Below, in pieces: positions 5,541 through 56,406 of a stretch of 64,000 bases of DNA. The stretch is taken from positions 1 to 64,000 of the forward strand of contig VXRD01000117.1 in NCBI GenBank assembly GCA_009838845.1, given 5' to 3'. The DNA comes from Gemmatimonadota bacterium (lineage in GTDB: Bacteria > Latescibacterota > UBA2968). Each line of letters starts with the position of its first letter. Position 1 is the first letter of the stretch. Made by a program: the position numbers and the translations under genes. The notes under the pieces were generated by a model. That model was not told the origin of the DNA. It worked only from the letters and a program-made list of their open reading frames with translations, and made no database searches.

Positions 5541-6434
5541 GTGGCGTTCAAGGTATTGACAGACGCGCAGGTAGCGCATTTTGTGGAGAAGGGGTATGTG
5601 AAGTTAGAGGGGTGTTTTGAGAAGGCGGAGATTCAGGATTGGCTCGATCTGGCATATCTGCGTTTGGGGTATGACAGGGATGATCCCACGACCTGGGTCG
5701 AAGATCGCATTCACATGCCGTCGATGAATCGGCGGGCAGTTGCCGATCTCGCGCCAAAAGCATGGGATGGGATATGCGATGTGATGGGCGGGGCAGAGCG
5801 CATTGAGGGTGAGCCTTCGTGGGGGGATGGGTTTATTATTAATTTTCACAAAGATGCCGATGATCCCTATGTTCCGTCGGCAAAGCATGGGGGATGGCAC
5901 AAGGATGGCAATTTTTTTCGGCATTTTCTGGATAGTCCAGAGCAGGGTCTGTTGACGGTGGTGGTTTGGGATGATGTGTTGCCCAATAGCGGCGGTACGT
6001 ATCTCGCGCCGGATTCGATTCCAAAAGTTGCGCGGTTTTTGTACGATCATCCCGAGGGTCTGGAACCGACGGGTTCGTTTGGGAAGATGATTGAGGGATG
6101 TGAGGAGTTTGTCGAGGCGACGGGTAATGCAGGCGATGTGTATCTGATTCATCCGTATATGTTGCATTCTGCTGCGCCAAATCCTTCGGGGCGTCCGCGG
6201 TTTATTACGAATCCTCCGGTTGCGTTTAAAGAGCCTATGAATTTCAATCGCGAGGATCCCGATGATTTTTCACTGGTGGAGAGAGTGGTGTTGAGGGCGC
6301 TGGGTGTCGAGCGATTGGATTACCGCATTACGGGCAAGCGAGAGCGGTATTATACGGAGTTCCGCCGCGAACGAGAGCGCATGCTGGTGGAGCAGAAGGC
6401 GCGTTTGGCAGAGCTTGAAAAGGAGGTTGTATGA
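5541..6434 (+). CDS. Phytanoyl-CoA dioxygenase (PhyH) family protein
   Basis: The 297-residue product starts at a GTG preceded by AGGAGG. Iron ligands are visible in GGWHKDGN (His120, Asp122) and MLHSAAPN (His209); Arg220 probably binds 2-oxoglutarate. The C-terminus carries a basic/acidic helix (residues about 265-297) not present in the neighbouring paralogs. The gene lies 11 bp after the secreted hydrolase and 82 bp before another PhyH, in one orientation. Family membership is clear, the substrate is not. Confidence 0.9.
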   Translation: MAFKVLTDAQVAHFVEKGYVKLEGCFEKAEIQDWLDLAYLRLGYDRDDPTTWVEDRIHMPSMNRRAVADLAPKAWDGICDVMGGAERIEGEPSWGDGFIINFHKDADDPYVPSAKHGGWHKDGNFFRHFLDSPEQGLLTVVVWDDVLPNSGGTYLAPDSIPKVARFLYDHPEGLEPTGSFGKMIEGCEEFVEATGNAGDVYLIHPYMLHSAAPNPSGRPRFITNPPVAFKEPMNFNREDPDDFSLVERVVLRALGVERLDYRITGKRERYYTEFRRERERMLVEQKARLAELEKEVV

Positions 6435-6516
6435 GTTGATGCGCAGGTGTAGTATTCTGGTGATGGAATCGGGAGAGGGTTTTCCACTCACACGGAGTTT
6501 TGAAAAGAGGATTGTT

Positions 6517-7371
6517 ATGGACGCGAGATGTCTGGATTATTGCGTGACCGAAGAGGAGCGGTTGAAGTTTGAACGCGATGGGTTTTTTATTCTTGAGAGC
6601 GTGTTGCCAGAGGATCTGGTGGATGAGTTGGTGCCGGTTGTAGATCGGGTGGATGGCGCGTATCGAGAGCGAGAGGGCATGGGGCCAGATCAGCGGTCGA
6701 ATATGCTGGATTTTATTGGGCAGGATGATTTGTTTTTGGAATTGCTCGATTGGTATAAGACTTTTCCAAAGGTATGGGGGTTGCTGAATTGGAATATTCA
6801 GCTTTACCATTCCCACATGATTGTGACGCCTCCTGTTGGTCCTGGAAAGTCGCTTGAGAAAGATGGACCGGGGCTTGGGTTTCACCAGGATAGCGGGCGC
6901 CTCAATCTCGATATTGAGACGAATCCGCGTCCGAGGATTTCGCTGAAGGTGGCGTTCTTTTTGACGGATGCATCAGAGCCTGGTCGCGGAAATTTTGTTG
7001 TGGTTCCCGGTTCGCATCTGGGCAATGTGTTTCCGGGCGAGAGTCGCTCAGAAATGCCCGAGGGCGGTATGCAGGTGTGTGTGCCGAAAGGTAGTGCGGT
7101 TTTTTTTGATCGGCGTATCTGGCATTCGAGCAGTACCAATTATTGGAATTCGCCCAGGCGTACGCTGTTTTACGGCTATAGCTATCGCTGGTTGCGGCCC
7201 CGCGATAATATGACGGTGGATCACTTTATAGAGCGTAGTGATCCTATCCGCAGGCAGTTGTTGGGAGCGAGTCCTTCGGGTGGTTTTGGATATACGTCGC
7301 CCAAACCCGAAGATGTGCCTTTGAAGACGTGGATTGAGGAGCATTTGGGTGAGAAAGCCGTGGCGGCTTAG
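6517..7371 (+). CDS. Phytanoyl-CoA dioxygenase (PhyH) family protein
   Basis: This 284-residue protein is a PhyH oxygenase with HxD in GFHQDSG (His123, Asp125), distal His203 in IWHSSSTN and a nearby Arg (214 or 215). ATG 6517 is preferred because AAAAGAGG ends 6 nt upstream; in-frame ATGs at 6439 and 6463 are possible but give a poorly conserved extension. It shares the FYGYSYRWLR segment with the protein at 3757-4593. It ends 2 bp before the convergent antitoxin gene hicB, so transcription of the PhyH series runs into the toxin-antitoxin module. Confidence 0.9.
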   Translation: MDARCLDYCVTEEERLKFERDGFFILESVLPEDLVDELVPVVDRVDGAYREREGMGPDQRSNMLDFIGQDDLFLELLDWYKTFPKVWGLLNWNIQLYHSHMIVTPPVGPGKSLEKDGPGLGFHQDSGRLNLDIETNPRPRISLKVAFFLTDASEPGRGNFVVVPGSHLGNVFPGESRSEMPEGGMQVCVPKGSAVFFDRRIWHSSSTNYWNSPRRTLFYGYSYRWLRPRDNMTVDHFIERSDPIRRQLLGASPSGGFGYTSPKPEDVPLKTWIEEHLGEKAVAA

Positions 7372-7373
7372 TG

Positions 7374-7709
7374 TTAGTATGTCTGCAGGATATCAGCGAG
7401 TGTATCGGTTGTCCATTGATTGATGCTTTTGCCACTGACTTCGGCAGCTGTGGCAATTGCTGCGTGAACTTCTGGGGGAAGGCGCAACATTAGATTGCCA
7501 GAATAGGGCTTTTGTGGAGAGCGATTTAATTTTTCACAGGTTTCGAGATAATCTTCCACTGCTTCTTCAAATGCAGTACGCAGTTGTGCAACCGAATCGC
7601 CGTGAAAACCCACGATGTCGTTGATGCCCGCTATGTGACCAATAAAGCAACGGTCTTCGTCGCTGTATTCAATACGAGCAGCATATCCTTTATGTGTCAT
7701 TGTGTTCAT
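7374..7709 (-). CDS. hicB: HicB-family antitoxin
   Basis: The 111-residue product has the HicB partial RNase H-like domain (residues about 5-60, with YSDEDRCFIGHI and GINDIVGFHG) and a C-terminal ribbon-helix-helix-type segment (residues about 70-105, SGNLMLRLPPEVHAAIA). In this family the antitoxin neutralises HicA and represses its own operon. The start codon overlaps the hicA stop by ATGA, giving translational coupling. A second ATG at 7700 is possible. A doubled palindrome upstream of hicA is the likely binding site. Confidence 0.93.
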   Translation of the reverse strand: MNTMTHKGYAARIEYSDEDRCFIGHIAGINDIVGFHGDSVAQLRTAFEEAVEDYLETCEKLNRSPQKPYSGNLMLRLPPEVHAAIATAAEVSGKSINQWTTDTLADILQTY

Positions 7710-7960
7710 GGTGCTATTCCCGCTTGTTGTAAAAAATGTTTGGCATCACGCACTTGATACGGCTTTGCCTCTTTCTGGGGATGAGGGCGATGAAAAGTAG
7801 CGACAATTTGATTCAGTTCAAATCTCACGCGCGAACCTCTGCCTTCAATAGTTCTGGCTCCAAGTGCTTTGAAAAGGGATTCGATACGTCTCCATTCCAA
7901 TGTGGAGGGGACGGGCGTTCTGAAGATGTCGTTTAAGGTGTTCTGGTGTCGTCTGTTCAT
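7706..7960 (-). CDS. hicA: HicA-family mRNA interferase toxin
   Basis: The 84-residue product matches the HicA double-stranded-RNA-binding-like fold of the long subgroup: STLEWRRIESLF, GRGSRVRF, TFHRPHPQKE and QVRDAKHFLQQAGI in order. HicA toxins cleave mRNA and tmRNA. The ATG at 7960 (MNRRHQNT) is chosen because it begins the conserved domain, although the frame stays open upstream to 8065 and would then overlap the divergent PhyH start. The operator palindrome ends 8 nt upstream of this ATG. It is cotranscribed with hicB. Confidence 0.92.
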   Translation of the reverse strand: MNRRHQNTLNDIFRTPVPSTLEWRRIESLFKALGARTIEGRGSRVRFELNQIVATFHRPHPQKEAKPYQVRDAKHFLQQAGIAP

Positions 7961-7967
7961 TGTTTTT

Positions 7968-7990
7968 ATGATATCATAATATGATATCAT
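7968..7990. promoter_or_regulatory. Doubled palindrome, probable hicAB operator
   Basis: Two identical copies of ATGATATCAT, itself a perfect palindrome, are separated by AAT (7968-7977 and 7981-7990). The site lies 7 nt upstream of the hicA start codon and 31 nt upstream of the divergent PhyH start. It also contains TATCAT/TATGAT strings able to serve as -10 elements. Autorepression by the RHH part of HicB is the expected role; it could also affect the divergent PhyH gene. Confidence 0.75.
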
Positions 7991-8021
7991 TGGCAAGTGT
8001 TTTGTATAGAGGGAGTGTTTC

Positions 8022-8804: not shown

Positions 8805-9170
8805 TCAGATGAATTTCTCGGGAGATACGTCAAAGATGACGGCTAATTTGCGCGCATTTTTCAGACTGATTGTGCGTAGGCCCCGTTCCATGTTGGAAAT
8901 ATGCTGACGGGGTATATTGCCCAATTTTCGGCCCAATTCGGCCTGAGTCATATTGTGATTTTGGCGATAGATTCTAAGGTTGTCACCAGGGATGATTTTA
9001 GACTTTATATCTCGATACCAGTTGGTTTCAAAAATATCGACGGTGTCATTGTCGTCATCGGAAATCTGAACGTCATTCCCAAATTCTTCTTCCAAAATTG
9101 AAAGAAGTCGATCTGGTATTTCGCCTTTGATATTGATTTCAATACGGGGCGTTTTCACGACTGCCTGCAT
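8805..9170 (-). CDS. Xre-family antitoxin (HTH)
   Basis: The 121-residue product has a C-terminal helix-turn-helix of the Xre/HTH_3 type (from about residue 64: LRIYRQNHNMTQAELG, then RQHISNMERG and LAVIFDVSPEKF). The N-terminal half is acidic and probably binds the toxin. ATG 9170 is chosen because GAGG lies 6 nt before it; a TTG at 9182 would add four residues. The gene overlaps the 3' end of the upstream toxin gene by 32 bp, giving toxin-first order as in HigBA-type modules. Confidence 0.88.
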   Translation of the reverse strand: MQAVVKTPRIEINIKGEIPDRLLSILEEEFGNDVQISDDDNDTVDIFETNWYRDIKSKIIPGDNLRIYRQNHNMTQAELGRKLGNIPRQHISNMERGLRTISLKNARKLAVIFDVSPEKFI

Positions 9171-9402
9171 AATATACCTCAATTGTTATTGTATCCTTTT
9201 CCCAATACCAGCACGCAACCCAATGATAGGCAATATGACAATGATATCTTTCTGCACCGAGTTTGCCATAGTTGGGCCAATCGTTTCTGATGGGCCCCTT
9301 GTCACGCAAATCTTCAACGAGATTGGCCATCTTTTTTTGAATTTGCTCAGGCATTTTTCGAATATTTCTGAGCAATTTTCTCTTGATGATGACGTTATAC
9401 AT
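9139..9402 (-). CDS. RelE/HigB-like toxin
   Basis: The 87-residue basic protein resembles RelE/ParE-fold translation-inhibiting RNases: an N-terminal helical part (KRKLLRNIRKMPEQIQKKM) followed by beta strands with KLGAERYHCHI and ITIEVYYAGSREN. In this family the C-terminal basic and aromatic residues contact mRNA on the ribosome. It is the first gene of a two-gene module with the Xre antitoxin and starts 6 nt downstream of a palindromic site. RelE versus HigB naming cannot be settled from sequence alone. Confidence 0.85.
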   Translation of the reverse strand: MYNVIIKRKLLRNIRKMPEQIQKKMANLVEDLRDKGPIRNDWPNYGKLGAERYHCHIAYHWVACWYWEKDTITIEVYYAGSRENAPY

Positions 9403-9408
9403 ATTAAA

Positions 9409-9431
9409 TTGTAACTATTTAATGGTTACAA
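9409..9431. promoter_or_regulatory. Palindrome, probable operator of the RelE/Xre module
   Basis: Inverted repeat TTGTAAC (9409-9415), nine-base spacer, GTTACAA (9425-9431). It lies just upstream of the toxin start codon at 9402 and 31 nt before the divergent sulfatase start at 9463. The position suits autorepression by the Xre antitoxin and possible co-regulation of the sulfatase operon. Confidence 0.65.
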
Positions 9432-9462
9432 GTCAAGTGGCAACCAATCCTGGAGCAATTTT

Positions 9463-10929
9463 ATGATAGATTCTCCTAATATTATTTTTATTTTGACTGA
9501 CCAGCATCGGCTGTCGGGCGTGGGAGCTTATGGCGAGACGCCTTGTCGTACGCCGAATATCGATCGCCTCGCAGCAGAGGGCATCTTGTTTGAGAATGCT
9601 TATACGGTTTATCCGGTGTGTAGTCCGGCTCGGGGGACGCTGCAAACGGGTGTGTATCCGCATACCCATGGCATTACGTCAAATATCCACGAGGTGGGGT
9701 GTAGTGTTCACGAGTTGGAGGATCGGCCCGAACTGTTGTCGCGGCGTTTGCAAGCGGTGGGGTATGGGACGGGATATACGGGAAAGTGGCATCTCGGCTC
9801 TGAGAAGACGCAGACATTTCAGGGGTCGAATAGGCCATCTTCACCTTCGCGTATCGGATATGAAGGGCAGGATTTTGCCGGGCACGGCGGGGCTGGTTCA
9901 AGTTATTCGGATTATCGGGCATGGGCGCGGGCTAAGGGTTATGAGCCGGGCGTGAAGCCCTGGGCTGAGGCGACTACGATGGTCCGCAATGGGGTGGGTG
10001 AGTTGACTGTACCAACTGAGGCGACGGTGCCAGCGTATCTGGTGGATAATGTGATTGAGATGAGCAGGTCGTTTCGGGAGCGCGATTTGCCGTATTTTAT
10101 CAGTTTGAATTTTTGGGGACCGCACGGGCCGTATCACGCGACGGGAGAGTTTGTGGATTGGTATCGGGATGTGGAGATTCCGCCGTGGGGAAATTACGAG
10201 TGGCCCTCGCGGGAGATTCCCGGTCCGCATCATTTGAAGATTCACTGGGATAAGGAGAATTTGACGTGGGAAGATTGGGCGATGGCGGTGCGCTATTATT
10301 ATGCGCGGGTGTCGATGATTGACAGTCAGATTGGTCGGTTGTACGATTATTTGAAGGCGAGTGGGGAATTGGACAATACGGTGCTGATTTTTACGGCGGA
10401 TCACGGCGAGACGCTGGGCAGTCACGGGGGGTTGCTGGATAAAGGGTGGCATCATTTTGAAGAGACGCATCATGTTCCGATGATTATCCGGCTGCCGGAT
10501 GGTTCGCATGCGGGAGCGCGCATTTCAGAGTTTGCTTCGCTGGCGGATATGTATCCCACGATTTTGGATCTAGCTGGTGGAGATTACGATGGGGATGCGA
10601 TTCACGGTGCGTCGCTTTTGCCGCTTGTTCGCGGTGAGGCGACGGACTGGCGCGATGCTGTGGTGACGGAGTTTTTGGGTTTGGGCAATGTGGCTACGTC
10701 GATGAAGATGCTGCGTATGGGGGATTTGAAATACGGGTGTAATTTGACGGGGCAGGACGAGTTGTACGATCTGAAGAACGATCCCCATGAGATGAATAAT
10801 GTGATTGATGATCCCGATTATGCCGATGATCTGGCGCGATTGAAGGCGCGGTTGCAGCAGTGGATGGTGGAGACCAGTGATCCGGCTTTGCGGATGTATC
10901 GCTGGCGCGAGCGTGAGGCGATTGGATAG
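9463..10929 (+). CDS. Type I sulfatase
   Basis: The 488-residue product is a type I sulfatase with the signature CSPARGTLQTG (Cys53 the predicted formylglycine), metal residues in LTDQHR (residues 11-16) and FTADHGE near residue 309, and the Gly-Lys-Trp-His stretch GKWHLG near residue 107. No signal peptide is present. It is the first gene of a compact seven-gene operon (9463-15626) that continues with a cupin, a dehydrogenase, three PhyH proteins and an SDR. Desulfation is probably the first step of that pathway. Its substrate is not known. Confidence 0.93.
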   Translation: MIDSPNIIFILTDQHRLSGVGAYGETPCRTPNIDRLAAEGILFENAYTVYPVCSPARGTLQTGVYPHTHGITSNIHEVGCSVHELEDRPELLSRRLQAVGYGTGYTGKWHLGSEKTQTFQGSNRPSSPSRIGYEGQDFAGHGGAGSSYSDYRAWARAKGYEPGVKPWAEATTMVRNGVGELTVPTEATVPAYLVDNVIEMSRSFRERDLPYFISLNFWGPHGPYHATGEFVDWYRDVEIPPWGNYEWPSREIPGPHHLKIHWDKENLTWEDWAMAVRYYYARVSMIDSQIGRLYDYLKASGELDNTVLIFTADHGETLGSHGGLLDKGWHHFEETHHVPMIIRLPDGSHAGARISEFASLADMYPTILDLAGGDYDGDAIHGASLLPLVRGEATDWRDAVVTEFLGLGNVATSMKMLRMGDLKYGCNLTGQDELYDLKNDPHEMNNVIDDPDYADDLARLKARLQQWMVETSDPALRMYRWREREAIG

Positions 10930-43650: not shown

Positions 43651-44763
43651 ATGTCACTTAAAGTTGGCGTTGTTGGTATGGGTGGTGTTGGCAATCGGCA
43701 TGCAGGCTGTCACGCAGAAGACGATCTTGCAGATCTCGTTGCTGTGTGCGATGTTGTCAAAGAGTCCGCGGATAAGGCTGCGGAAAGACACGGGGTCAGG
43801 GCTTATTATAGTCTCAAAGATATGTTGGAGAATGAAGACCTGGATATTGTCGATGTTACTACTGGGGGAAATGAGAACGGCAGTTGGCACTATGAACCGA
43901 CGATGGAGGCTCTCGCCGCTGGCAAACACGTTTTGTGTGAAAAACCCCTGTCCAACGATATTGATGAAGCCCGCGATATGGTCGCTTATGCCGCAGAACA
44001 AAATCAGTACCTCGGCTGCAATCTCAACCATTATTTTTCTCAACCTGCGGACAAGGCGCGAGAATATATCGCAGAAGGCAAAGTGGGCGAACAAATTTAC
44101 TGTATTCACAAGATGGGTTTTGCAGGTGGTGAAGCGACTTATAGACCAGGCAAAGGACCGAAATCGTGGGGGCATCCCTATTTTCATGTTAAGGCTTTTC
44201 TCACGCATCCTTTTAGCGTGATGCGAGATTTTTGCGGCAATATCACCCATGTGCAGGCATTTTTCGATCGTCCCAGTTTTCGCAAGCAGGCGGGCGATCT
44301 GATGATTTCCCTCAATAGTATTCACATGCGTTTTGAAAGCGGTGCTATGGGTTATTTGCTGAGCCAGCGCGGCGATGTCACTTTTGGTCTGGGCGGCTGG
44401 TGGAGCGTTGAAGTGGCGGGTACGCTCGGGACTTTTTGTATTGAGAACTGCGTTGAAAAAATCACTTTCTGGCCCGCGCCTGGCACAGCGCCTATGCCGG
44501 AGAATATGTCGCACGGTGCCGCGCCCGATCCCATTGTCGATGATACGGGGATTACTGACTTTGGCTCCACTTTTCCCAATCGCATCCACGCTTTTCTCGA
44601 GGATGTCACCAACGGTGTGCCCAGAGAAGAACTCCGCGCTTCAGGTCACGATGCGCTCGCTGCCCTCGAATACACATGGGCGGCGATTGAATCCTATGAA
44701 AATGGCGGTGTGCTCGTCACACCCAATCCCCTGCCTTTGCTCAAACGAGATCCGATGACTTAA
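43651..44763 (+). CDS. Gfo/Idh/MocA-family oxidoreductase
   Basis: The 370-residue protein has the N-terminal Rossmann motif VGVVGMGGVGNRHA and the EKP motif (CEKPLSNDI) of the Gfo/Idh/MocA family, with the alpha/beta C-terminal domain complete. It oxidises or epimerises sugars or inositols with NAD(P). ATG 43651 is chosen because TTTAGGAG precedes it; the frame is open to 43585 but overlaps the previous gene. A strong terminator follows. Substrate unknown, likely a sugar or polyol released in the sugar-acid pathways around it. Confidence 0.91.
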   Translation: MSLKVGVVGMGGVGNRHAGCHAEDDLADLVAVCDVVKESADKAAERHGVRAYYSLKDMLENEDLDIVDVTTGGNENGSWHYEPTMEALAAGKHVLCEKPLSNDIDEARDMVAYAAEQNQYLGCNLNHYFSQPADKAREYIAEGKVGEQIYCIHKMGFAGGEATYRPGKGPKSWGHPYFHVKAFLTHPFSVMRDFCGNITHVQAFFDRPSFRKQAGDLMISLNSIHMRFESGAMGYLLSQRGDVTFGLGGWWSVEVAGTLGTFCIENCVEKITFWPAPGTAPMPENMSHGAAPDPIVDDTGITDFGSTFPNRIHAFLEDVTNGVPREELRASGHDALAALEYTWAAIESYENGGVLVTPNPLPLLKRDPMT

Positions 44764-44768
44764 AAATC

Positions 44769-44801
44769 AAAAACGGGACCAGATTCAGGTGTCCCGTTTT
44801 T
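44769..44801 (+). terminator. Intrinsic terminator
   Basis: Stem AAAAACGGGAC (44769-44779) and GTCCCGTTTTT (44791-44801), 11-base loop, T-rich tail. It is symmetric enough to act on both strands between the Gfo/Idh/MocA gene and the convergent DUF2283 gene. Confidence 0.88.
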
Positions 44802-44864
44802 TGCGATAGTCTTTGTCAGTGGTGTATGAAGGCGAGTGAAGGGTTGTACTACTGCGGTAGCAGG

Positions 44865-45227
44865 TCAATGCTTCCTGTGTAACATCAGTGATGTAATTGG
44901 AATCGTTTCAATGGCAGATGGTGTATAGGCCGATAGCGGAAGGATTTCTTTGATGGGTGGGCGTTGAAGAATATCTACAACCATATCTCTCAGTGCATCG
45001 GATAGGTCGTTCAGGCCCGTCAAGGGGAAACTCCGAGGCCCTATATTCGTTTGTTGCGTCAAAATCGAATAGTCGAAAAATGTCAATCCAACAGCTTTGC
45101 GTTTGGCCTTATCAATCCGAAGTAGAATATGATCATTCAGCGCAATGCCTGTTGCTTTAACATTGGGTTCAAATGACACATACAGTGTATCACTTTCTCT
45201 ATCATAGTTGAAATTGGGTTCATTCAT
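44865..45227 (-). CDS. DUF2283-domain protein
   Basis: The 120-residue protein contains a DUF2283 domain in its N-terminal half (YDRESDTLYVSFEP, ILLRIDKAKRKAVGLTFFDY). The C-terminal extension (residues about 65-120) is hydrophobic and of unknown role. Its ATG overlaps the stop of the upstream gene by ATGA, so the two are translationally coupled. In toxin-antitoxin-like two-gene modules DUF2283 often sits as the second, antitoxin-like partner; that role is inferred here. Confidence 0.8.
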   Translation of the reverse strand: MNEPNFNYDRESDTLYVSFEPNVKATGIALNDHILLRIDKAKRKAVGLTFFDYSILTQQTNIGPRSFPLTGLNDLSDALRDMVVDILQRPPIKEILPLSAYTPSAIETIPITSLMLHRKH

Positions 45228-45556
45228 ATTGTCAGAATCTCTTTTTGGTACGCTGTGAGAATATAATTGTTCGCAATCTCATGGCCGTTTACTTCCCGAA
45301 ATTTAAAAAGGACAATGGCGACGATATGCGTATTGTCTCCGACCAGATCGTCAAAGGGTTTACTGTATCGGTATTTATGAAAATTCAAGGGTTCTTGTTT
45401 GCGTTGCCCTAGTCGAATTGTATCCCGAAGATGTGCTTCAAAATCCCGCATTTCAGGATGGTTCCAGGGATCAATAATGTGCTCCCATCTTTCATCGGTA
45501 AGATAGATGATGTTGCCGTGTCGATCTTTAACCGCCCATCGTCTGCCGATAGCCAT
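45224..45556 (-). CDS. Small protein coupled to DUF2283, possible BECR-type nuclease toxin
   Basis: The 110-residue protein carries AVKDRHGNIIYLTDERWEHI near the N-terminus and ends ILTAYQKEILTI. This pattern recalls small BECR/DUF4258-like nuclease domains where a late Thr-Ala-Tyr strand and an early His are conserved. It is the first gene of a coupled pair with DUF2283. A 15-bp palindrome lies 68 bp upstream. Toxin function is an inference from architecture, not shown by a recognised motif. Confidence 0.65.
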   Translation of the reverse strand: MAIGRRWAVKDRHGNIIYLTDERWEHIIDPWNHPEMRDFEAHLRDTIRLGQRKQEPLNFHKYRYSKPFDDLVGDNTHIVAIVLFKFREVNGHEIANNYILTAYQKEILTI

Positions 45557-45623
45557 GCAATTTCCTATTCACACAATGAAGAAAAATAGCTGAAAAGTCA
45601 AGCATGTTGCGTTCATTTCACGC

Positions 45624-45638
45624 TGTTCAACTTGAACA
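45624..45638. promoter_or_regulatory. 15-bp palindrome upstream of the DUF2283 module
   Basis: TGTTCAACTTGAACA is a perfect inverted repeat around a central C, followed by a further TGTTCAT half site at 45642-45648. It is 68 bp upstream of the two-gene module and within the divergent gap before the STAS gene. An autoregulatory operator is plausible. Confidence 0.5.
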
Positions 45639-45798
45639 TATTGTTCATTAATACCTGCAATTTCCGGGTTGTATTTTACTCTTGCAAATTCCATACCAGT
45701 CCCTTTTGTAGATTAAGAAATAGTTGTAAAATCGGTGCAAGGGGCTTATGTTATCACATTCAAAGAATATCCAATCTCTTTTAACAAAGGAAGTAGCT

Positions 45799-46143
45799 AT
45801 GAATCTAAGGGAAGAAATCAAAGACGATATCGCGATTATTACCCTTACAGGTGAACTGATGGACGGTCCTGATGTTATGCCGTTTCATGACCACATCAAG
45901 CAACTCGTTGCAAGTGGTACCAATCGCGTGATTGTCGATTTTTCTGCTGTCAGATGGTTTGGCAGTGCGATGCTCGGGGTTCTCACCGCATCTCTGGCGA
46001 CGGTTAAGGCTGCAGGTGGCGATTTGCGTCTGGTGGGTATTACCAGAAGAATCGAGAGCATTCTCATGGTTACGTCTCTGGCTTCGGCTTTTCAAACGTT
46101 CAGGACGGTGAACCGCGCTATGGTCAGTTTCAGGCATGAGTAA
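45799..46143 (+). CDS. STAS-domain protein (anti-sigma factor antagonist-like)
   Basis: The 114-residue protein is a single STAS domain with ITLTGELMDGPDV and VIVDFSAVRWFGSAMLG. Ser56 is at the position phosphorylated in SpoIIAA/RsbV-type antagonists. It would bind a switch kinase to release a sigma factor, but no anti-sigma kinase gene is adjacent. ATG 45799 follows AAAGGAAG; an upstream start at 45748 is less likely. A terminator follows immediately, so it is probably transcribed alone. Confidence 0.88.
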   Translation: MNLREEIKDDIAIITLTGELMDGPDVMPFHDHIKQLVASGTNRVIVDFSAVRWFGSAMLGVLTASLATVKAAGGDLRLVGITRRIESILMVTSLASAFQTFRTVNRAMVSFRHE

Positions 46144-51758: not shown

Positions 51759-52348
51759 ATACGATCCGCAGTACAGGTTTAGCTACTTTGCTGTTGCTAT
51801 TTATGGCCTGTAAACCGCTTGAGCGCACGCCGCAGTCCGATCCCGATCTCACCCTTTCTGCCGATCCCTTTCCTTTTGGCGGCGATTTGACGCTTGTTGA
51901 TCACGATGGCAATTCTTTCCATTTGGCAGATCAACAGCGTCCGTTTCTTCTCTTTTTTGGCTATGCGAGTTGTCCCGATGCGTGTCCTCAAACGATGGCG
52001 CGGCTTGCGAGTGCTTATACGATTTTAGGCGAGGATGCACGCGATCTCAGGACGCTTTTTGTGAGTGTTGATCCCGGGCGCGATTCACCCGAAATGCTCA
52101 AATCTTATTTGTCGCATTTTGACGTGCCAGCTATTGGTCTTACAGGGGCGCGGGATAGTATTGATGCGGTGGTTAAGCGCTATGCCGCTCATTATGAGGT
52201 TGGCGAGCAGGGTTCTGCGGCGGGGTATCTTATCGACCATTCCCTCTATACCTATCTCATTGACCAGAACGGCGATTTGCGCTTCTTTTTTCGCTCGTCT
52301 CACACTGCCGAAGAAATCGCGACTGTGGTTCGTCAATTGTCCAAGTAG
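51755..52348 (+). CDS. Sco1/SenC-family copper delivery protein
   Basis: The 197-residue thioredoxin-fold protein has a lipobox FMAC (Cys19), the copper/redox motif CPDAC (Cys73, Cys77) and the conserved His162 in DHSLYTYLI. Sco proteins assemble the Cu(A) centre of cytochrome c oxidase or keep its thiols reduced. It is the last of three overlapping genes. A perfect 12-bp palindrome begins 58 bp after its stop. Confidence 0.93.
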   Translation: MNTIRSTGLATLLLLFMACKPLERTPQSDPDLTLSADPFPFGGDLTLVDHDGNSFHLADQQRPFLLFFGYASCPDACPQTMARLASAYTILGEDARDLRTLFVSVDPGRDSPEMLKSYLSHFDVPAIGLTGARDSIDAVVKRYAAHYEVGEQGSAAGYLIDHSLYTYLIDQNGDLRFFFRSSHTAEEIATVVRQLSK

Positions 52349-52406
52349 ATTCGCACCGAGACTGCGAAGCATCTGGAATAAGGAAATTGGAAACTGCTTG
52401 AGGGGA

Positions 52407-52433
52407 AATTCTCTCACAGGTTGTGAGAGAATT
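52407..52433. promoter_or_regulatory. Perfect 12-bp palindrome upstream of RHH-like gene
   Basis: AATTCTCTCACA (52407-52418), loop GGT, TGTGAGAGAATT (52422-52433). There is no T-run after it, so it is not a simple terminator. It lies 66 bp upstream of the small RHH antitoxin-like gene and could be its operator, or an RNA hairpin ending the Sco operon. Confidence 0.55.
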
Positions 52434-52499
52434 AGAACACAGTCCAATATAGCACAGGCTGTTGCCATATTGAGCAAGGTCGCACAGGGTTGAAAGTTA

Positions 52500-52739
52500 A
52501 TGACAACCATAAGTCTTACTATACCCGATTCACTTCACGCAACGGTCCGTGATATTATCGAGCGTGAAGGCATGTCGCTCGAACAGTTCATCATGTTGGC
52601 GATGGCTGAGAAGGCGTCGGCAATTGCGACAGAAACGTACCTTGAAGCGCGTGCAAAGCGAGGAAGCAGAGAGAAATTTTTGGCGGCAATGGCAAAGGTA
52701 GCGGACGTAGAACCGTCAACAGATCAGGATCGGATTTAG
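52500..52739 (+). CDS. Orphan RHH antitoxin-like protein
   Basis: The 79-residue protein has an N-terminal ribbon-helix-helix of the HicB/CopG type (TTISLTIPDSLHATVRDIIE then REGMSLEQFIMLAMAEKASA) and a charged C-terminal tail. Such proteins bind DNA as dimers and neutralise a partner toxin. No toxin gene follows; the next 275 bp hold only a palindromic repeat. It is therefore an orphan antitoxin or regulator, perhaps left after loss of the toxin. Confidence 0.8.
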   Translation: MTTISLTIPDSLHATVRDIIEREGMSLEQFIMLAMAEKASAIATETYLEARAKRGSREKFLAAMAKVADVEPSTDQDRI

Positions 52740-52835
52740 TTTGGGGTGAGAAGCCGATTGATCCTGGATTTAGTTTCAAAGCAATATGAAGACTACATGA
52801 TGTGTGGCTTCAAAAGTAAATGTGCTACTACACCA

Positions 52836-52960
52836 TGTCATGCTGAGGAAGCCGATAGGCTGACGACGCATCTGTGACCCATGCACACCGTTCAAGCAGC
52901 AGAGGAACTGCTATCGCAGTTGTATCCCGCTCCTTCGACTACGCTACGCTCAGAATGACA
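52836..52960. repeat. Inverted-repeat element (TGTCATGCTGAG type)
   Basis: A 125-bp element with ends TGTCATGCTGAG (52836-52847) and CTCAGAATGACA (52949-52960), matching the ends of the element at 28812-28897. The interior contains GAAGCCGATAGGC and CTTCGACTACGCTACG. It fills most of the 275-bp gap before the accessory island. Confidence 0.75.
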
Positions 52961-53014
52961 GGCGCATTATATTGTGCATAATGCGTAATATCAGTTACTC
53001 ACGAAAGACAATTA

Positions 53015-53860
53015 ATGAGACTCGAATTGTACCGACAACATTTAGGCTATGAACTCGCAAGTCTGCCCGATGTGCGATATCAAAATATCCAAAGCTATGC
53101 ACTGACAACGGGTGTCTTGGTGCGAAAAATTATTCAGCACTTTAAGATAAACAGCATCCGTATAGCGGATTTTTATGACCAAGGAAAATACCACCAACTA
53201 GAAAAAGTGCTCGGAGCATTAATACACTATGCCAGATTTGAGCCACATTATAGAAACAAAAATTATATGTCCCAAAACAACAATAATGACAAAGACAATA
53301 TTGTGCGGCTCAAATCTGACACAAAAGAACTCTCTATTAGCTTAAATGATTATTTCGATATCTTGTCTCGTTTTGCCCATGATGATTTATTTATTACTCA
53401 TCATTTTTTTTCTAGCTTGGTTACACTCTTGACCGAATGTGTTAAGTATCCACTCGGAAAGGTTAGTAGTGGCGAGTATCAAAATTTTATATGTGATTTT
53501 GCTGATGATGCTTTTGGGGTCGTATCAAAACTGGTTGAGTCAGGAACTATTCAAATCCCACAAAATCTGGAAATATTCTGTTACCAGGATGCTATTCTTG
53601 ATCCCAATGACCCTTTTAACAGTCAACAATTAGAGCCTGCCCACATGTCGTGTGCCTCTTTTATAAGAGGTTTCAATGATCTCGGTCATCGTTTTCTTAT
53701 AGGCCATGGGACAGAAAATTTTTATGGCATAACAGAATATGTATACCGGAGACATTGGAAAAGCGAAGAATTTCATACCCTTGTAATTCCATTTGAGGAT
53801 TTACTCAACATGTCCAGGGTGATAAAAGCCAAGGCAAGAGAGGGGGCTGTGTCGCCTTGA
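53015..53860 (+). CDS. Protein of unknown function in the accessory island
   Basis: The 281-residue protein has no motif I recognise. It is soluble, mixed-charge, with no signal peptide or membrane segment; the middle (residues about 75-110) is rich in Asn, Asp and Lys. Its DNA is clearly more AT-rich than that of the flanking catabolic genes. It is followed by a 94-residue unknown gene and then a restriction-modification pair, all on the same strand. A defence-related role is only positional. Confidence 0.75.
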   Translation: MRLELYRQHLGYELASLPDVRYQNIQSYALTTGVLVRKIIQHFKINSIRIADFYDQGKYHQLEKVLGALIHYARFEPHYRNKNYMSQNNNNDKDNIVRLKSDTKELSISLNDYFDILSRFAHDDLFITHHFFSSLVTLLTECVKYPLGKVSSGEYQNFICDFADDAFGVVSKLVESGTIQIPQNLEIFCYQDAILDPNDPFNSQQLEPAHMSCASFIRGFNDLGHRFLIGHGTENFYGITEYVYRRHWKSEEFHTLVIPFEDLLNMSRVIKAKAREGAVSP

Positions 53861-53900
53861 ACATGGTTCCTCCACCATACACACAGAAAGGATCAGCAAG

Positions 53901-54185
53901 ATGGGCGAAATAATAGGGCCGATCAAAATATCTGCTGACCGTGTAGGCATAACCTCCATAAGTTCTTTGCGAGGACTAGGAGACAGTAGTGTATCTGCTA
54001 TAGCTAAAAAAGGGGAGGCAGTGTTAGTGTCGTTCAAGGTCCACAAGGGCGGAAAGGATTTGGAGTGTGAAGAACTCATCAAAATTCTTTTGGATATGGT
54101 TGCTGCCGCATATCATCATCAACCAGAATCGAAGGAAGAATCAGCGAAATACGCCTATCTAAGGCAGGTAACACAAATTTCTTAG
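53901..54185 (+). CDS. Small protein of unknown function
   Basis: The 94-residue protein has no known motif. Its first half contains Ser/Gly-rich turns (ITSISSLRGLGDSSVS), the second half is helical and charged. It lies 40 bp after the preceding unknown gene and 228 bp before the restriction gene, in an AT-rich stretch. AGAAAGGA upstream of ATG 53901 supports it being expressed. Confidence 0.6.
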   Translation: MGEIIGPIKISADRVGITSISSLRGLGDSSVSAIAKKGEAVLVSFKVHKGGKDLECEELIKILLDMVAAAYHHQPESKEESAKYAYLRQVTQIS

Positions 54186-54205
54186 AAGGCCGTTTTAAAA
54201 ATCAT

Positions 54206-54240
54206 TCTGGGAGCGCAGGCTTCCAGCCTACATGCGCTGT
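54206..54240. repeat. Hairpin repeat (GGGAGCGCAGGCTTCCAGCC type)
   Basis: AGCGCAGGCT, loop TCC, AGCC with outer arm TGCGCT (54212-54239). This GGGAGCGCAGGC hairpin is of a kind dispersed in many bacterial genomes. It is in the gap between the unknown gene and the restriction gene. Confidence 0.5.
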
Positions 54241-54413
54241 TTTCGTCCATTTTGTTCGCATATTCGGTTCCAAATTGACGCTATAATGCTTTGTCTATGC
54301 AGGTCTCTGAAGGTTTTCAAACAGCTTCTAAATCTCAAACCAAGAAGTTTTCAGTCTCTCTCATCCATTTTATACATCTTCAGCCCTCAAAAGCGGAAAG
54401 GAATAGCATTTGT

Positions 54414-55262
54414 ATGAACACCTATAATCCGTACAAAGATTTTACTGATCGCCTGAAGTTGCTGAGTAGTAAACATCCAGATTTGATCACAACTACACTC
54501 AGTAATATCTTCACCATGCGCCTCATTGGGAACAAAACTCATGGTGATCTGGCAGAAATAGCAATCGCTGAATTTATCAATCAATACATGTACGACTTTC
54601 AATCAATTCACGTAGGTAAAGATCTCTACCGGGCAAAGTCAAAAGAGGAAGACATTAAGATCATCAACGAAATCACCAAAGATGAGTTTCCCGTCAGTCT
54701 TAAAGCCTACGGGGATGGCCCCCTTCAGCTCTCCACCGACAAGAATTTCCGCATGTTTCCAAGACTGGAACAAGAGGGTATCGAAGTTAAAGAACGAGTT
54801 GCTATTCAAAAAATTTTACAAGACCCTGCTTTCGTTGAATTTCGCAACATCAATGTGCTACCGCTGATCTATGACGAAAAGAATCAACGTTGCAATATAC
54901 TTGTTTTCGATTATAACCGTGCGATAAGTGAGACTGCCCGCATCACAAGAGAGGAAGGGACAAGAGGGAGAAAGCATCCTGTATACCGTTTTTATGATAT
55001 ATTTGAGAACTATATATGCGAGGTTCGTTATGGCGATGCTACTGCAAACGCGCTTCAACGGGGCCTGTGGACCCATACTAAGAACGGACTGAAATATTTT
55101 GATAGCATTACCGGTGGGTGGATCGACTATTCACACAATCAGTTCCTTGTCAAATTATTTTCTCATGCGTTGGTTTCATCAGAAGATGGACACATATCAG
55201 CACTTGAGAAAGTCCAAGAAGATATTGCACAATTAAAACAGAGATCGGGGGTAAGAATATAA
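54414..55262 (+). CDS. Probable type II restriction endonuclease
   Basis: The 282-residue protein is directly coupled to a DNA adenine methyltransferase gene; its stop TAA and the methylase ATG share one base. The middle region has THGDLAEIAIAEFI and FPVSLKAYGDGPLQLSTDK, which could supply a PD-(D/E)xK-like active site (Glu and Lys), as in type II enzymes. ATG 54414 has GGAAAGG upstream; the frame is open to 54291. Assignment as nuclease rests mostly on context; the recognition sequence is not predictable. Confidence 0.75.
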   Translation: MNTYNPYKDFTDRLKLLSSKHPDLITTTLSNIFTMRLIGNKTHGDLAEIAIAEFINQYMYDFQSIHVGKDLYRAKSKEEDIKIINEITKDEFPVSLKAYGDGPLQLSTDKNFRMFPRLEQEGIEVKERVAIQKILQDPAFVEFRNINVLPLIYDEKNQRCNILVFDYNRAISETARITREEGTRGRKHPVYRFYDIFENYICEVRYGDATANALQRGLWTHTKNGLKYFDSITGGWIDYSHNQFLVKLFSHALVSSEDGHISALEKVQEDIAQLKQRSGVRI

Positions 55263-56398
55263 TGCTAACTTCTCTCTTTGACGATCTCGTGCTTGATGCA
55301 CCTCCCACAGAGGGAATCAAATACGCGGGGTCTAAGTTGAAACTTCTTCCGCGTATTCTGCAATTGGTGAAAAAAGTTGATGCAAGGACGGTTTTGGATG
55401 GGTTTTCGGGTACGACGAGGGTGTCGCAGGCACTTGCAAGGCTGGGTTATACGGTTGTTTGCAATGATGTTGCGGTGTGGTCGAAGGTTTTTGGGACGTG
55501 CTATTTGCTGAATGAAAAGAGGCGAGAGGATTACCAACCACTGATCGATCATCTCAATGCGCTTCCGCATGTGGATGGGTGGTTCACGGAGCACTATGGG
55601 GGCTATGCCAATGACGGATGTGCGATACAGAGGGATGGGCGCAAGAAGCCGTGGCAAATACACAATACCCGTAAATTAGACGCGATTCGAGAGGAGATCG
55701 ACGCGCTGAAGCTCGATCCGGTTGATGAGGCTGTGGCGCTTACGAGTCTGATTTTGGCGCTGGATCGCGTGGATAGCAGTTTGGGGCATTTTGTTTCTTA
55801 TCTGAAGGATTGGTCGCCGCGTTCTTATAAGGAGCTTGTGCTGAAGGTGCCGAATATTTTTTGTTCATCAGGGGAACATCAGGTATGCCAGAGGGATATT
55901 TTTGATCTCGTTCCCGATATATCTGTTGATCTGGCGTATTTCGATCCCCCTTATGGATCAAATAACGAGAAGATGCCACCGTCGCGGGTGCGGTACGCTT
56001 CGTATTACCATGTGTGGACGAGTGTGATTTGTGCCGATAAACCGGCTCTTTTCGGGAAGGCCAATCGCCGTAGGGATACATCGGATACTGTGGCGGCGTC
56101 TGTTTTTGAGGCGTTTCGGCGGAATGATGAGGGGCGTTTTATTGCTGTTGAGGCGATTGAGAATCTGATTGAGGCGACGCGCGCGCGATGGATTATTCTA
56201 TCGTACAGTTCTGGCGGGCGGGCGACTGCGAGAGCGTTGAACGATGTGTTGCGGCGCAATGGCGAGATAGTGGATGTGGTTGCGCTCAATTACAAGAAGA
56301 ATGTGATGGCGGGGATGAAGTGGACGAATGAATGGTTGAGGGATGCAGAGGAACCGAACCGGGAGTTTTTGTTTTTGCTCGAGAAAAAGGCGGTCTGA
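55262..56398 (+). CDS. DNA adenine methyltransferase, D12 class (restriction-modification)
   Basis: The 378-residue protein has the alpha-class (Dam/D12) motif order: motif X KYAGSKLKLLP, motif I VLDGFSGTTRVS, then motif IV DPPYG. It methylates the exocyclic amino group of adenine. With the gene before it, it forms a type II restriction-modification module. The coding sequence is more like the flanking genome in GC content than the upstream gene. It ends 8 bp before the Lgt-like gene. Confidence 0.92.
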   Translation: MLTSLFDDLVLDAPPTEGIKYAGSKLKLLPRILQLVKKVDARTVLDGFSGTTRVSQALARLGYTVVCNDVAVWSKVFGTCYLLNEKRREDYQPLIDHLNALPHVDGWFTEHYGGYANDGCAIQRDGRKKPWQIHNTRKLDAIREEIDALKLDPVDEAVALTSLILALDRVDSSLGHFVSYLKDWSPRSYKELVLKVPNIFCSSGEHQVCQRDIFDLVPDISVDLAYFDPPYGSNNEKMPPSRVRYASYYHVWTSVICADKPALFGKANRRRDTSDTVAASVFEAFRRNDEGRFIAVEAIENLIEATRARWIILSYSSGGRATARALNDVLRRNGEIVDVVALNYKKNVMAGMKWTNEWLRDAEEPNREFLFLLEKKAV

Positions 56399-56406
56399 TA
56401 AATACG

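What the first reader, a model, noticed from the sequence alone, without database searches (positions are those of the whole stretch)
52740..55262. AT-rich accessory island with two unknown genes next to restriction-modification
The stretch from about 52.98 to 55.26 kb is visibly richer in A and T than its surroundings. It has repeats at its left side and within it, and it holds two unrecognised genes plus a restriction endonuclease candidate coupled by one base to a D12 adenine methylase. The unknown genes may be extra defence parts.
Basis: partly seen in the sequence, partly recalled or inferred. Interest (0 to 1): 0.55.

Follow-up and report, generated by a model that had tools for sequence, protein, structure and literature searches.

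The report
Orphan methylase re-armed with restriction enzyme
A stretch of foreign, AT-rich DNA in a Latescibacterota genome brings a DNA-cutting enzyme to a methylase that close relatives keep without the cutter, plus two genes of unknown function; the enzyme pair is of an ordinary kind, its history is the interesting part.

Summary
In detail: 52,980-55,262 has 40% G+C (window median 52%), and A (281 aa), B (94 aa) and the endonuclease score below 39 long ORFs in codon use. The last two genes are a Type II restriction-modification pair overlapping by one base. Two corrections. First, the methylase is native: it lies upstream of lgt in 10 of 10 same-genus relatives, 9 of which have no match to the endonuclease. 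Trees place the window genome among these methylase-only relatives (one test does not reject the alternative), yet its methylase starts with ~15 codons of the endonuclease-linked type. Best reading: recombination gave a long-orphaned methylase its cutter back, with a junction at 55,292-55,306. Second, A and B are not a regular part of this system: 80 of 80 related endonucleases have the methylase next door, 0 of 80 show A or B (5 have under 1 kb upstream), and no relative of either was found. The slot holds nuclease-type or toxin-antitoxin-type genes in some relatives, so a defence role is possible, not shown. Mixed-strain assembly is a rival.

The parts
52346..52499 (.). native spacer after SCO1 with an inverted repeat (52407-52433)
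   Evidence: 88-90% identical in G002, G007, G009
52500..52739 (+). small ribbon-helix-helix-like ORF (79 aa), native to the genus
   Evidence: 94% identical copies in the same slot in G002 and G009; only weak, sub-cutoff matches to families
52775..55305 (.). segment foreign to the relatives: left edge where similarity to G002 ends (52774), right edge 55292-55306 inside the methylase gene
52830..52990 (.). patchwork of dispersed repeat pieces
   Evidence: 10 places in the own genome including itself
53015..53860 (+). gene A, 281 aa, no relative found
   Evidence: open frame far beyond chance
53901..54185 (+). gene B, 94 aa, no relative found; coding status likely but less sure
54414..55262 (+). 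Type II restriction endonuclease, 282 aa, PD-(D/E)XK-like fold
   Evidence: PADLOC PDLC03568 E 9.4e-137, profile positions 5-280 of 281; model pLDDT 84, Z 10.3 to 3ndh, 9.3 to NaeI; dN 0.067, dS 1.215 against G008
55262..56398 (+). D12-class N6-adenine methyltransferase; first ~15 codons of the endonuclease-linked type, rest of the native orphan type
   Evidence: PF02086 E 2.8e-21, PDLC03342 E 6.8e-171

Best explanation
It is a Type II restriction-modification pair made by re-arming an orphan methylase. In an ancestor of the genus an endonuclease-methylase pair sat between SCO1 and lgt (still seen in G008, there with a stop codon inside the endonuclease). In the main clade the endonuclease was deleted, the methylase got a new, shorter start and was kept alone under selection. 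In the window genome, homologous exchange with a relative that still had the pair replaced the slot from about 52,775 to about 55,300, restoring the endonuclease and the old methylase start and bringing cargo genes A and B along. The methylase marks adenines at its site; the endonuclease cuts DNA that lacks the mark, such as incoming phage DNA. Because the cell was already methylated, a cutter could arrive without killing it. A and B are passengers of the same slot and are probably not needed for restriction. Shown: gene identities, presence/absence in relatives, the mixed methylase start, nesting in most of the trees. Inferred: direction and mechanism of the exchange, enzyme activity and site, the harmless arrival, any role of A and B.
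For: Methylase upstream of lgt in 10 of 10 same-genus genomes (in G005 only its last 225 codons are assembled); endonuclease matched in 1 of these 10 (G008, internal TAA). In 5 of the 8 methylase-only relatives whose methylase start is assembled (G001, G003, G004, G006, G010) only 17-18 bases separate the SCO1 stop from the methylase start, so the absence is no assembly gap. All 8 have a short start that looks homologous (MMRVACDVP, MMRNDLNVP, MTRDGLDSP, MMPDGLDVP); the window and 4 of 4 relatives with an endonuclease or its remains (G008, G034, G044, G046) have the longer type. From 55,306 on the window methylase is 94.9% identical to G003 and 76.7% to G008. Holding the methylase-only genomes together, apart from G000 and G008, is rejected on 7,833 columns of upstream flank (6 such genomes; p-AU 1.6e-5), on flank plus lgt and cysS (p 1.6e-4) and on the methylase (8 such genomes; p 0.008). 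Codon use: A, B and endonuclease below 39 background ORFs, methylase 19th of 40. Methylase dN/dS 0.10-0.17 in six pairs of methylase-only genomes. 80 of 80 related endonuclease loci have a methylase match just downstream on the same strand. The endonuclease groups with the three other Latescibacterota copies (SH-aLRT 92, quick tree), so the donor was probably a relative within the phylum.
Against: The four nearest genes (PCuAC, SCO1, lgt, cysS; 3,266 columns) do not reject the methylase-only genomes as one clade (p-AU 0.171). G008, the only outgroup, is a long branch of odd composition, and I had seen a first tree before naming the tested group, which flatters the p-values. The nearest kin of G000 differs by region (G003, G001), a sign of exchange in this region. 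No donor carrying A or B was found. Repeated loss, or spread of a deleted allele by exchange, is not excluded: G006's start is nearly that of G001, G003 and G010 although flank trees put it with G002 and G004. The native short RHH ORF also scores lowest in codon use, so that measure is weak for short genes. The genome is in 172 contigs and no reads were seen. No activity is shown.
Confidence: 0.68

Rival explanations
1. The pair was never lost in the window's lineage; the other genomes lost the endonuclease several times or took a deleted allele from each other, so the window shows the ancestral state plus two inserted genes.
For: G008, the most distant same-genus genome, has the pair in the same slot; the slot is evidently exchanged among relatives; the four nearest genes do not reject it (p-AU 0.171).
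Against: It needs the same type of short start in the nearest kin G001, G003 and G010 and in the rest; methylase and flank trees reject it; the endonuclease has odd codon use while the methylase has not.
Confidence: 0.18
2. Assembly or binning chimera: reads of a co-occurring strain with a complete pair were joined to this strain's methylase.
For: Draft genome of 172 contigs, 3.12% contamination estimate; the junction lies where the two alleles become alike.
Against: Native DNA lies on both sides of the island within one 75-kb contig; the left side holds the genus-type RHH gene; the methylase frame runs intact across the junction. Even then the allele would exist in a close strain.
Confidence: 0.1
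3. A and B with the endonuclease and methylase form one four-gene defence system.
For: Same strand, close spacing, similarly odd codon use.
Against: 0 of 80 related endonuclease loci show A or B (75 of the 80 have more than 1.7 kb upstream); G008 has the pair with neither gene between SCO1 and endonuclease.
Confidence: 0.07
4. A and B are an independent two-gene defence or toxin-antitoxin cassette that shares the slot (compatible with the best explanation).
For: Same slot in relatives: Mrr-type nuclease protein, CN-hydrolase protein and RHH/ParE pair in G002; PIN and RHH genes in G009; RHH-type genes in G007 and G008.
Against: No family hit for A; for B only a sub-cutoff plant DUF868 hit; B's coding status is only modestly above chance; no usable fold for A; 5 relatives have an empty slot.
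Confidence: 0.3

Closest known systems
PADLOC REase_II PDLC03568 with MTase_II PDLC03342 (Type II R-M pair)
   Same: Both proteins match nearly the whole profile; gene order as in 80 of 80 related loci
   Different: Here the pair sits at a locus where most close relatives keep only the methylase; site specificity unknown
Decay of R-M systems to retained orphan methylases, as discussed for Halobacteria (PMC6471742; passages seen)
   Same: Methylases outnumber endonucleases; loss of the endonuclease leaves a methylase
   Different: Here the reverse step, regain of an endonuclease beside the orphan, is inferred at one locus with a visible junction
Solved Type II endonucleases 3ndh, NaeI (1ev7), BglI (1dmu)
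   Same: Shared fold by VIA-align: Z 10.3, 9.3, 7.7; rmsd 4.4-4.5 over 180-187 residues
   Different: Sequence identity 10-13%; no convincing sequence match in the PDB

Membership tests
Type II restriction-modification system | endonuclease with a restriction-nuclease fold | tested here: met
   PDLC03568 E 9.4e-137; model pLDDT 84, pTM 0.76; 48 of the 50 structural rows shown are nucleases, best Z 10.3, though Foldseek alone gave no E below 0.001; E48, D80 and K97 invariant in 53 sequences, their catalytic role is my inference
Type II restriction-modification system | adjacent DNA methyltransferase | tested here: met
   PF02086 E 2.8e-21, above cutoff; one-base overlap; methylase match beside 80 of 80 related endonucleases
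Type II restriction-modification system | cleavage and methylation at the same site | not testable with these tools
   needs purified enzymes or methylome data
Orphan (solitary) methyltransferase, in the relatives | conserved without endonuclease and under purifying selection | tested here: met
   9 of 10 same-genus relatives have no endonuclease match at E <= 0.001 in the genome and keep the methylase; dN/dS 0.10-0.17 in six pairs of them
R-M controller (C) protein, for A or B | recognisable helix-turn-helix profile | tested here: not met
   no such Pfam or NCBIfam match at E <= 1; a highly divergent one would be missed
Known defence gene family, for A or B | match to a PADLOC model | tested here: not met
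   0 families at E <= 1 for either
Defence hotspot (SCO1-methylase slot) | varied defence cargo at one conserved position in relatives | tested here: inconclusive
   of 9 same-genus relatives with the slot assembled, G002 and G009 hold nuclease- or toxin-antitoxin-type genes, G007 an RHH-type gene, G008 an RHH-type gene and the broken endonuclease, 5 are empty

The most novel reading that the evidence does not exclude
A conserved orphan methylase serves as the homology anchor of a small defence slot: because its host is already methylated, endonucleases and new defence genes can be swapped in by recombination without self-damage, and A and B are a new orphan defence cassette carried by such a swap.
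Probability: 0.2. Interest if true: 0.62.

Novelty: new member of a known kind. Interest (0 to 1): 0.42.

Why it matters
That endonucleases are lost and methylases stay is in print (PMC6471742, passages). Regain of a cutter beside a long-kept orphan did not appear in the listings of four paper searches, which is a thin look. If right, orphan methylases are standing permissions for restriction to return, which can be tested in laboratory bacteria with this pair. A and B are two genes without known relatives in a slot that some relatives fill with nuclease and toxin-antitoxin genes.

Tried and rejected
Relatives of A: none in 59 other genomes of the phylum, IMG/VR, genome contigs (52 pattern stretches, none confirmed), plasmids, phages, PDB sequences. 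Relatives of B: none in the same 59 genomes, plasmids, IMG/VR, phages. The pattern scans find close relatives only. B was not searched in genome contigs or the PDB; both genome-contig scans went to A and to the endonuclease.

Structure of A without an alignment: mean pLDDT 46, pTM 0.48; the PDB search with it gave nothing (best E 4.8) and is not used.

Endonuclease in plasmids, phages and IMG/VR: none. Methylase in PDB sequences: none. Rfam on 52,300-56,400: none. Promoter- and terminator-like sites: 11 against 6.3 (sd 2.7) and 3 against 2.1 (sd 1.3) in shuffles, not pursued. No tRNA in the window as an integration site. A stretch at 54,209-54,231 that I took for a dispersed repeat is single in the genome. 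A further gene shared by the related endonuclease loci: of the 15 largest clusters printed, 14 come from one group of six Chloroflexota loci (one of them also with L124) and one is an ATPase-like family in 4 loci.

Rows dropped: of 87 related endonucleases the tool kept 80; 5 of these 80 have stops or split matches (L070, L089, L138, L147, L148); 52 loci plus the window went into the alignment, 54 loci plus the window into the tree. G005 was left out of the trees, as its contig starts inside the methylase. On the downstream flank G008 had too little alignable sequence and was dropped, and the clade test then stopped with an error; the tree itself put G000 with G001 and G003 at 100/100. The upstream flank was used instead, without G003, G005 and G009.

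Full report
What is there. The stretch is as described: 40.3% G+C, lower than any other stretch of its length in the window (0 of 1,235 at 50-base steps as low; median 51.8%). From left to right: a native 79-aa ribbon-helix-helix-like ORF (52,500-52,739), a spacer with pieces of dispersed repeats, gene A (281 aa), gene B (94 aa), a restriction endonuclease (54,414-55,262) and a D12 methylase (55,262-56,398). Endonuclease and methylase overlap by one base. A, B and the endonuclease score below all 39 background ORFs in codon use; the methylase, itself among the 39, is 19th of 40. The background consists of mechanical ORFs of 200 aa or more and may include false ones; the short native RHH ORF also scores lowest, so the measure is noisy for short genes such as B.

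The restriction pair. The endonuclease matches PADLOC PDLC03568 over nearly the whole profile (E 9.4e-137) and the methylase PDLC03342 (E 6.8e-171) and Pfam PF02086 (E 2.8e-21). A genome scan gave 87 relatives of the endonuclease among 155 candidate stretches; of the 80 kept, from many phyla, 80 have a methylase match just downstream on the same strand (distance between matches -53 to 86 bases). This set was chosen by the endonuclease and so says nothing about orphan methylases. The model of the endonuclease on 53 sequences is good (pLDDT 84, pTM 0.76). Its best structural matches are Type II endonucleases (3ndh Z 10.3, NaeI 9.3, BglI 7.7) and 48 of the 50 rows shown are nucleases, though Foldseek alone gave no E below 0.001. 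The endonuclease is under purifying selection (dN 0.067, dS 1.215 against G008; 0.091 and 2.28 against G034; dS near saturation).

The methylase is native and mostly alone. It lies upstream of lgt in 10 of 10 same-genus relatives, with SCO1 on the other side in 9; in G005 the contig ends inside the methylase. In 64 genomes of the phylum, the window's included, it is found in 14 and any trace of the endonuclease in 5: the window, G034 (no stop), G008 (internal TAA at codon 119), G046 (split by a DDE transposase gene) and G044 (fragments). In 5 of the 8 methylase-only relatives with an assembled start, 17-18 bases separate SCO1 from the methylase. Methylase-only genomes keep the gene under selection (dN/dS 0.10-0.17 in six pairs).

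The junction. The 8 methylase-only relatives share a short start; the window (MLTSLFDDLVLDAPPTEG) and 4 of 4 relatives with an endonuclease or its remains (for example G008, MTQLPLFGDLVLAAPPTEG) have a longer one. From 55,306 on the window's methylase is native (94.9% to G003, 76.7% to G008). So the window's methylase joins an endonuclease-linked start to an orphan-type body. The window genome also lies among the methylase-only genomes: on the upstream flank it joins G001 (100/100) and then G010 (98/98), and holding the 6 methylase-only genomes present together is rejected (p-AU 1.6e-5; with lgt and cysS added 1.6e-4); the methylase itself gives p 0.008 with 8 such genomes. The four nearest genes alone do not reject it (p 0.171). 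G008 is a long, compositionally odd outgroup, I had seen a first tree before the tests, and the nearest kin of G000 differs by region (G003 or G001); all this counts against certainty. The likeliest history is loss of the endonuclease in the main clade and regain by exchange in the window's lineage, probably from a donor in the same phylum (Latescibacterota group SH-aLRT 92 in a quick tree, below the tool's star level).

A and B. No relatives were found in anything searched (listed under Tried and rejected), no profile match above cutoff, no usable fold. They were not seen in 80 of 80 related R-M loci by tblastn (E up to 1) or by phmmer on nearby ORFs; 5 of the 80 (L071, L073, L079, L093, L111) have under 1 kb upstream and could hide them. 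They are therefore not a regular part of this restriction system. Their slot is variable: G002 carries an Mrr-type nuclease domain protein (PF04471, score equal to its cutoff of 21), a 772-aa protein with a carbon-nitrogen hydrolase domain, and an RHH/ParE pair; G009 a PIN protein and the RHH-like gene; G007 and G008 a gene like G002's RHH gene (by eye); 5 relatives nothing. That makes a defence or toxin-antitoxin role for A and B plausible (I say 0.3) and no more.

Verdict. An ordinary kind of R-M pair with an instructive history, and two orphan genes. Papers: passages of PMC6471742 speak of decaying R-M systems through loss of the endonuclease in Halobacteria; passages of PMC12707154 mention orphan methylases kept in lineages. 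Of the other searches I saw listings only: Latescibacter with restriction-modification, 4 papers; orphan methylase searches, 84 and 52 papers of which 15 and 12 were listed; with 'regain', 3 papers that look unrelated by title.

Noticed in passing
L025:4753-8629: In G002 the same slot holds an Mrr_cat protein (315 aa), a 772-aa protein with a CN_hydrolase domain and no other Pfam match, and an RHH/ParE pair; looks like an unlisted defence cassette.
   Followed up: partly
L113, L119, L121, L126, L127, L129 around 6001-8000: In six Chloroflexota records the same R-M pair sits inside what looks like a cytochrome c oxidase operon (named by eye, no profile run); in the window it sits beside SCO1 and PCuAC, also oxidase assembly genes.
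   Followed up: no
L118, L123, L128: The endonuclease also occurs in Candidatus Synechococcus spongiarum (two records) and another cyanobacterial record.
   Followed up: no
L029 against L024, L026, L033: G006 shares a nearly identical methylase start with G001, G003 and G010 although flank trees place it with G002 and G004: exchange at this slot in other directions too.
   Followed up: partly
window 9001-9500 and 44751-46000: Two other AT-rich dips (37% and 41-43% G+C).
   Followed up: no
window 52830-52990: Patchwork of dispersed repeats: 52830-52903 matches a second place in the genome at 91%, the right part (52935-52988) seven others at 84-90%.
   Followed up: partly
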